From: Thermomicrobiales bacterium
Lineage (GTDB): Bacteria > Chloroflexota > Chloroflexia > Thermomicrobiales > UBA6265
Reading direction: 5' to 3'
Length of the DNA: 64,000 nt
NCBI GenBank assembly: GCA_019637585.1
Contig: JAHBVL010000002.1
Coordinates: 506,023-570,022 of the forward strand
The notes below the pieces were generated by a model, which did no database searches, was not told where the DNA came from, and worked only from the letters and a program-made list of their open reading frames with translations. The translations under genes and the position numbers were made by a program. Positions 58,449-58,637 of this stretch are shown piece after piece. Within the stretch, counting starts at the first letter, position 1, and the number at the start of each line of letters is the position of its first letter.

Positions 58449-58637
58449 GACGCGTTTCGGACATCGACCCGGCGCCAGCTCGCAAGAATCTTGGTCCGTC
58501 TGAGACCGCATGAGAGCGCGATGCGACGCCGGGTGATGGTCCGCCCGAGTCCGAACAGGTGCCAGGTCCCGAGACCGAATCGGCAAGACAGGACGGACGC
58601 GGACCATGATGCCATCCGGGACGCAGGAGGACCAGTC
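58449..58637 (+). ncRNA. Candidate bridge RNA / left-end non-coding region of the IS110 element
   Basis: A 189-base non-coding stretch directly before the transposase. It folds by eye as a nested structure: TTCGGAC (58456-58462) with GTCCGAA (58549-58555), inside it ACCCGGCG (58467-58474) with CGCCGGGT (58527-58534), and CGCAT (58507-58511) with ATGCG (58521-58525). Known IS110-group elements encode a structured bridge RNA in just this position that pairs with donor and target DNA. The boundaries and guide loops here are not established. Confidence 0.5.

What the first reader, a model, noticed from the sequence alone, without database searches (positions are those of the whole stretch)
58449..58637. 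Candidate bridge RNA upstream of the IS110 transposase
The long non-coding left end contains nested stems (TTCGGAC/GTCCGAA, ACCCGGCG/CGCCGGGT, CGCAT/ATGCG) with internal loops, directly before an intact DEDD transposase. IS110-group elements are known to carry a structured RNA there whose loops pair with target and donor DNA. The guide loops and core dinucleotide are not resolvable from one copy.
Basis: partly seen in the sequence, partly recalled or inferred. Interest (0 to 1): 0.65.

Follow-up and report, generated by a model that had tools for sequence, protein, structure and literature searches.

The report
Bridge RNA of an IS110 transposon

Summary
The finding holds. A covariance model built from 32 relatives, without this element, finds the bridge RNA at 58453-58605 (76 bits, E 1.6e-17). 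Across 36 sequences 17 of 25 pairs show compensatory changes.

The guides can be read from this copy. Left target guide AAGAATCT (58484-58491) equals the left flank, 8 of 8. Right target guide ATGAGAG (58510-58516) pairs 5 of 7 with the right flank. Left donor guide ACAGGTGC (58555-58562) equals the element's right end; the right donor guide AU..GCAAG fits CTTGTAT discontiguously, as in IS621. In 35 elements, guides match their own flanks far better than each other's (0 of 20,000 permutations).

A second, 55%-identical element in the same genome sits in the other arm of the same repeat family, its guides rewritten to that arm. Expression and activity were not tested.

Verdict: real, interpretation supported, new member of a known kind.

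The parts
58342..59611 (+). IS110-group element with one copy of the CT core (left core 58342-58343; right core 59612-59613)
   Evidence: Flanks are adjacent, with a 2-bp overlap, in empty copies of the repeat
58318..58343 (+). Left part of the split palindromic repeat, GTCATTCTGAACGAAGTGAAGAATCT
   Evidence: Matches other repeat copies
59612..59691 (+). Right part of the split repeat
   Evidence: Matches other repeat copies
59593..59598 (+). TTGACA, -35 half of the promoter formed when the ends join
   Evidence: 17 nt from TATGTT on the joined ends; same pattern in 50 of 69 elements
58346..58351 (+). TATGTT, -10 half of the junction promoter
58358..58375 (+). 5' hairpin GGGTCAT-AGGG-ATGACCC, also in the sister element
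58387..58411 (+). Hairpin CCGTGGGTA-TTCAGCG-TACCCACGG, not in the sister element
58415..58448 (+). Perfect 34-bp palindrome; candidate 5' stem-loop of the RNA; base changes compensated in the sister element
58453..58605 (+). Bridge RNA core: target-binding loop and donor-binding loop
   Evidence: Covariance model R2, built without this element: 76.2 bits, E 1.6e-17
58458..58543 (+). Target-binding loop, basal stem 58458-58474 / 58527-58543
58484..58491 (+). Left target guide AAGAATCT
   Evidence: Identical to the left flank plus core; family test
58493..58507 (+). Tip hairpin of the target-binding loop, GGTC...GACC
   Evidence: 100% of cells paired in 36 sequences
58510..58516 (+). Right target guide ATGAGAG
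   Evidence: Pairs with 5 of 7 bases of the right flank; family test
58549..58598 (+). Donor-binding loop, closed by GTCCG 58549-58553 / CGGAC 58594-58598
58555..58562 (+). Left donor guide ACAGGTGC
   Evidence: Identical to the right end of the element plus first core base; co-varies with it in relatives
58579..58587 (+). Right donor guide AU-CG-GCAAG, discontiguous pairing with CTTGTAT at 58342-58348
   Evidence: Sequence; same scheme as in IS621 (PMC11208158)
58638..59576 (+). IS110 recombinase, 312 aa; D7, E51, D93, D96 and S231 conserved

Best explanation
58342-59611 is an IS110-group insertion sequence whose left non-coding end encodes a bridge RNA. When the element excises as a circle, its joined ends form a sigma-70-like promoter (TTGACA, 17 nt, TATGTT) that transcribes the left end. 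The RNA folds into 5' hairpins, a target-binding loop and a donor-binding loop. In the target-binding loop, AAGAATCT reads the bottom strand left of the core and ATGAGAG reads the top strand right of it. In the donor-binding loop, ACAGGTGC and AU..GCAAG read the element's own joined ends. The DEDD/serine recombinase bound to this RNA recombines the two DNAs at a CT core and so inserts the element into one arm of a palindromic repeat scattered through the host genome. Shown here by sequence: ends, core, structure, guide-flank and guide-end complementarity, intact enzyme, promoter motif. Inferred from IS621: circle, transcription, RNA binding, strand exchange.
For: Ends and core from empty sites. 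Model without this element: E 1.6e-17 here and 4.6e-15 for the sister, nothing else in the genome. 17 of 25 pairs with changes on both sides, 95.4% of cells paired, 0 of 500 shuffles. Own-flank match of the guides: right guide 6.46 of 7 against 3.65 for other flanks, left guide 6.06 of 9 against 3.95, 0 of 20,000 permutations, wrong-strand controls at background. Donor guide against right end 7.78 nt against 5.53, 0 of 5000. The sister element in the other repeat arm has guides for that arm, 8 of 8 and 7 of 7. Junction promoter in 50 of 69 elements against 1% of shuffles. Solved relatives ISCro4 and IS621.
Against: The right target guide of this copy pairs with only 5 of 7 flank bases. No transcript, circle or insertion was observed. 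In most relatives the ends were placed by short end motifs, not by empty sites.
Confidence: 0.95

Rival explanations
1. The structure is only a leader that controls translation of the transposase (hides or exposes the ribosome-binding site) and has no guide role.
For: It lies directly before the gene, and in ISPpu9 (inserted in REP sequences, with a structured leader) a structured 5' leader limits transposase translation (PMC8450116).
Against: A leader does not explain why loop sequences follow the insertion flanks in dozens of elements or why the second loop follows the element's own right end. A leader role could exist in addition.
Confidence: 0.03
2. The active product is a minus-strand (antisense) small RNA over this region that regulates the element, as Asr9 does for ISPpu9; the plus-strand structure is its mirror.
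For: Rfam sX15 matches the minus strand over its full length, below its cut-off (39.2 bits, E 2.2e-5) and at its cut-off in a relative. Asr9 is antisense to the ISPpu9 leader.
Against: Stem pairs and guide matches do not by themselves tell the strand, but the junction promoter points along the plus strand, and the known bridge RNAs are transcribed with the gene (PMC11208160).
Confidence: 0.03
3. It was a bridge RNA, but this copy is a drifted, inactive remnant.
For: Two mismatches in the right target guide, a single copy, and no site in the genome that matches both guides exactly.
Against: Intact enzyme with the catalytic residues, and intact ends, core, donor guides, promoter halves and stems. 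IS621 mostly inserts at sites with one mismatch to its loop (PMC11208160).
Confidence: 0.2

Closest known systems
IS621 of E. coli (IS110 group) and its bridge RNA
   Same: CT core, long left end with the RNA, two loops with left and right guides, discontiguous right donor guide, junction promoter, insertion in a palindromic repeat (PMC11208160, PMC11208158)
   Different: Right target guide of 7 nt including the core here, 4 nt in IS621; different repeat and guides; longer left end (296 nt against a median of 210 in its relatives)
ISCro4 (IS110 group, solved structure 9t56)
   Same: Best sequence match among solved structures, E 1.3e-34 over residues 4-302
   Different: Only the protein was compared
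seekRNA of ISEc21 and IS1111 elements (PMC11187229)
   Same: RNA from the non-coding region guides the target choice; upstream of the gene in the IS110 type
   Different: The IS1111 members carry the RNA downstream of the gene and have subterminal inverted repeats
Rfam sX15 (RF02234)
   Same: Full-length match to the reverse complement of this RNA
   Different: Opposite strand; named only as a Xanthomonadaceae small RNA

Membership tests
IS110-group element with bridge RNA | DEDD RuvC-like domain plus Transposase_20 domain, about 300-350 aa | tested here: met
   PF01548 E 1.6e-22 and PF02371 E 7.7e-17, 312 aa
IS110-group element with bridge RNA | Catalytic D, E, D, D and serine | tested here: met
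   D7, E51, D93, D96, S231 invariant among three family members; serine aligned with ISCro4; spacing as D102/D105 and S241 of IS621
IS110-group element with bridge RNA | Long left end, short right end | tested here: met
   296 nt and 35 nt
IS110-group element with bridge RNA | Only a short core shared with the target, scarless empty site | tested here: met
   CT on both sides, empty repeat copies
IS110-group element with bridge RNA | Structured RNA with two internal loops before the gene | tested here: met
IS110-group element with bridge RNA | Target guides complementary to both target strands including the core | tested here: met
   Left 8 of 8, right 5 of 7 here; family-wide 0 of 20,000 permutations
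IS110-group element with bridge RNA | Donor guides complementary to the joined ends | tested here: met
   Left donor guide 8 nt; right donor guide by the IS621 scheme, not significant as a contiguous match
IS110-group element with bridge RNA | Promoter formed at the joined ends | tested here: met
   TTGACA-17-TATGTT; 50 of 69 elements; motif only, activity not shown
IS110-group element with bridge RNA | RNA is expressed and bound by the recombinase | not testable with these tools
   Needs RNA sequencing and purification
IS1111 group | RNA in the right end, subterminal inverted repeats of 7-17 bp | tested here: not met
   RNA in the left end, right end 35 nt
Rfam sX15 | Reaches the gathering score on the modelled strand | tested here: not met
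   39.2 bits against 55, on the opposite strand

The most novel reading that the evidence does not exclude
One palindromic repeat family shared by Chloroflexota genomes is a recurrent landing site for independently programmed bridge RNAs. Four different IS110 elements (this one, its sister, L023, L136) sit in it at three registers, so such repeats may act as a common refuge that selects guide sequences again and again.
Probability: 0.45. Interest if true: 0.5.

Novelty: new member of a known kind. Interest (0 to 1): 0.36.

Why it matters
It gives a resolved bridge RNA (core, four guides, ends, junction promoter motif) from a clade far from the E. coli examples. It comes with a natural reprogramming pair: two elements of one genome, 55% identical in protein, whose target loops differ mainly at the guide positions, each matching a different arm of one repeat family. 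The 7-nt right target guide of this clade is longer than that of IS621, which bears on specificity if such enzymes are used as tools.

Tried and rejected
A single-protein scan of the genome collection found no relatives; an alignment query did. The plasmid search gave only short transposase matches. A regular-expression extraction of guides placed only 10 of 69 elements, most of them wrongly, and was replaced by alignment columns (then 49). The right donor guide as a contiguous match was not supported; the IS621-type discontiguous pairing fits by eye but was not tested statistically. Rfam at its own cut-offs finds no family here.

Full report
What is there. The window holds one intact IS110-type recombinase gene, 58638-59576, 312 aa, with both Pfam domains of the family. 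Its closest solved relatives are ISCro4 and IS621. A search of the window's own genome (3.94 Mb, 33 contigs) with the element and its flanks found one full copy (this one), one 67%-identical element on contig C9, and dozens of short matches to the flanks only. Those short matches are copies of a palindromic repeat of about 110 bp. In several of them the left and right flanks of the element are adjacent with a two-base overlap, so the element has split such a repeat. The junctions read GTGAAGAAT-CT-[element]-CT-CTCCGTCG, which puts the element at 58342-59611 with a CT core on each side. Intact sites of this arm (GTGAAGRATCTCTCC) occur 10 times and sites of the other arm 25 times in the genome, against none for reversed control patterns.

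Structure. The left end folds far better than shuffled sequence (z -4.75). 36 upstream regions (this element, its sister on C9 and 34 relatives) were aligned and 25 pairs in four helices were counted: 95.4% of cells pair, 17 pairs have changes on both sides, and no shuffle or column shift comes near. The structure was drawn from the same alignment, so a control matters: a covariance model built from 32 relatives without the two elements of this genome finds both of them, at E 1.6e-17 and 4.6e-15, and no other place in the genome. The model match runs 58453-58605 and consists of two loops. Its other two stems use bases that belong elsewhere: GTCCG closes the second loop with CGGAC at 58594-58598, and CGCAT overlaps the right target guide.

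Guides. The loops were read by the IS621 scheme (PMC11208160, PMC11208158). The left target guide at 58484-58491 is AAGAATCT, the same eight bases as the left flank with the core. The right target guide at 58510-58516 is ATGAGAG, which pairs with five of the first seven bases of the right flank (core included), the two outermost being mismatched. The left donor guide at 58555-58562, ACAGGTGC, equals the right end of the element with the first core base. The right donor guide is AU, two unpaired bases, then GCAAG (58579-58587), which pairs with CTTGTAT at the left end in the discontiguous way shown for IS621.

Statistical test. In 69 elements with both flanks readable, the longest shared stretch between left flank and target loop is 5.97 nt for own pairs and 4.52 for others; for the right flank 6.36 against 4.47; for the right end and the donor loop 7.78 against 5.53. 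None of 5000 permutations reaches any of these. Target flanks against the donor loop, and the right end against the target loop, are at background. With positions fixed by the alignment, in 35 elements, the right guide matches 6.46 of 7 with its own flank against 3.65 with others (26 of 35 perfect), and the left guide 6.06 of 9 against 3.95; none of 20,000 permutations reaches either, and wrong-strand versions are at background. The elements are related, but their flanks come from different sites, so inheritance alone does not explain this. In the relatives the ends were placed by short end motifs, not by empty sites, so a few may be misplaced; that works against the result.

Sister element. 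The C9 element sits in the other arm of a copy of the same repeat, with left junction GCGAAGGAT-CC and right junction CT-CCTGCCGC. Its guides are AAGGATCC (8 of 8) and GCAGGAG (7 of 7). Between the two elements the target loop differs at 7 of 16 guide positions and 6 of 48 others (Fisher p 0.013). The sister's left junction has CC where the right one has CT, and its left guide also has CC; this fits a target with a CC core, or a later mutation, and was not resolved.

Promoter. Joining right end, core and left end gives TTGACA, 17 nt, TATGTT. The pattern TTGACN-(15 to 19)-TANNNN spans the joined ends in 50 of 69 elements, with spacing 17 in 44, against 1% of shuffled junctions. Bridge RNAs of IS621 and its relatives are expressed from such a junction promoter (PMC11208160, PMC11208158).

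Same repeat, other elements. The arm GTCATYCTGAGCGAAGCGAAGRATC occurs 62 times here, 15 times in G022 (same taxonomic family) and 70 times in the genome of L136, with up to two mismatches. The IS110 elements L023 (in G022) and L136 also lie in this motif, at two further registers, and their right target guides match (7 and 8 nt). REP-type repeats are known targets of IS110 elements (PMC1525189 and PMC11208160), so the habit is known; the repeat family and the several registers are what is added. The window's genome is placed in the same phylum as genomes whose contig lengths equal those of records titled Chloroflexi bacterium.

What is shown and what is inferred. Shown by sequence: ends, core, structure with compensatory change, guide complementarity, intact enzyme, promoter motif. 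Inferred from the IS621 work: circle formation, transcription, binding, strand exchange. Not known: whether this copy is active. The mismatched right guide and the single copy leave room for an inactive element.

Verdict. The kind of system has been known since 2024, so this is a new member, with a useful natural pair of differently programmed loops.

Noticed in passing
58613-58455 (minus strand); L045 1470-1304; L174 1409-1560: Rfam sX15 (Xanthomonadaceae small RNA) is the reverse complement of an IS110-type bridge RNA: it matches the minus strand here (39.2 bits) and in L045 (55 bits, its cut-off), and model R2 finds a bridge RNA (E 8.3e-18) on the opposite strand of an sX15-like locus on a Xanthomonas hortorum plasmid. 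No IS110 transposase was found beside that locus, so it may be an orphan.
   Followed up: partly
58318-58343 and 59612-59691: Palindromic repeat of about 110 bp with arms GTCATYCTGARCGAAGYGAAGRATCT; 62 arm copies in this genome, 70 in that of L136, 15 in G022. Origin and function of the repeat not studied.
   Followed up: partly
58415-58448: Perfect 34-bp palindrome GCAGCCAGCGGGGCCAGCTGGCCCCGCTGGCTGC, kept with compensated changes in the sister element; longer than a 5' stem-loop needs to be, role unknown.
   Followed up: no
L002 (C9 element), left junction: Core CC at the left junction and CT at the right one, while the left target guide carries CC: possible trace of insertion into a site whose core differed from the donor's.
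   Followed up: no
window 55004-55075 (minus strand): tRNA gene, the only Rfam match of the window at curated cut-offs.
   Followed up: no
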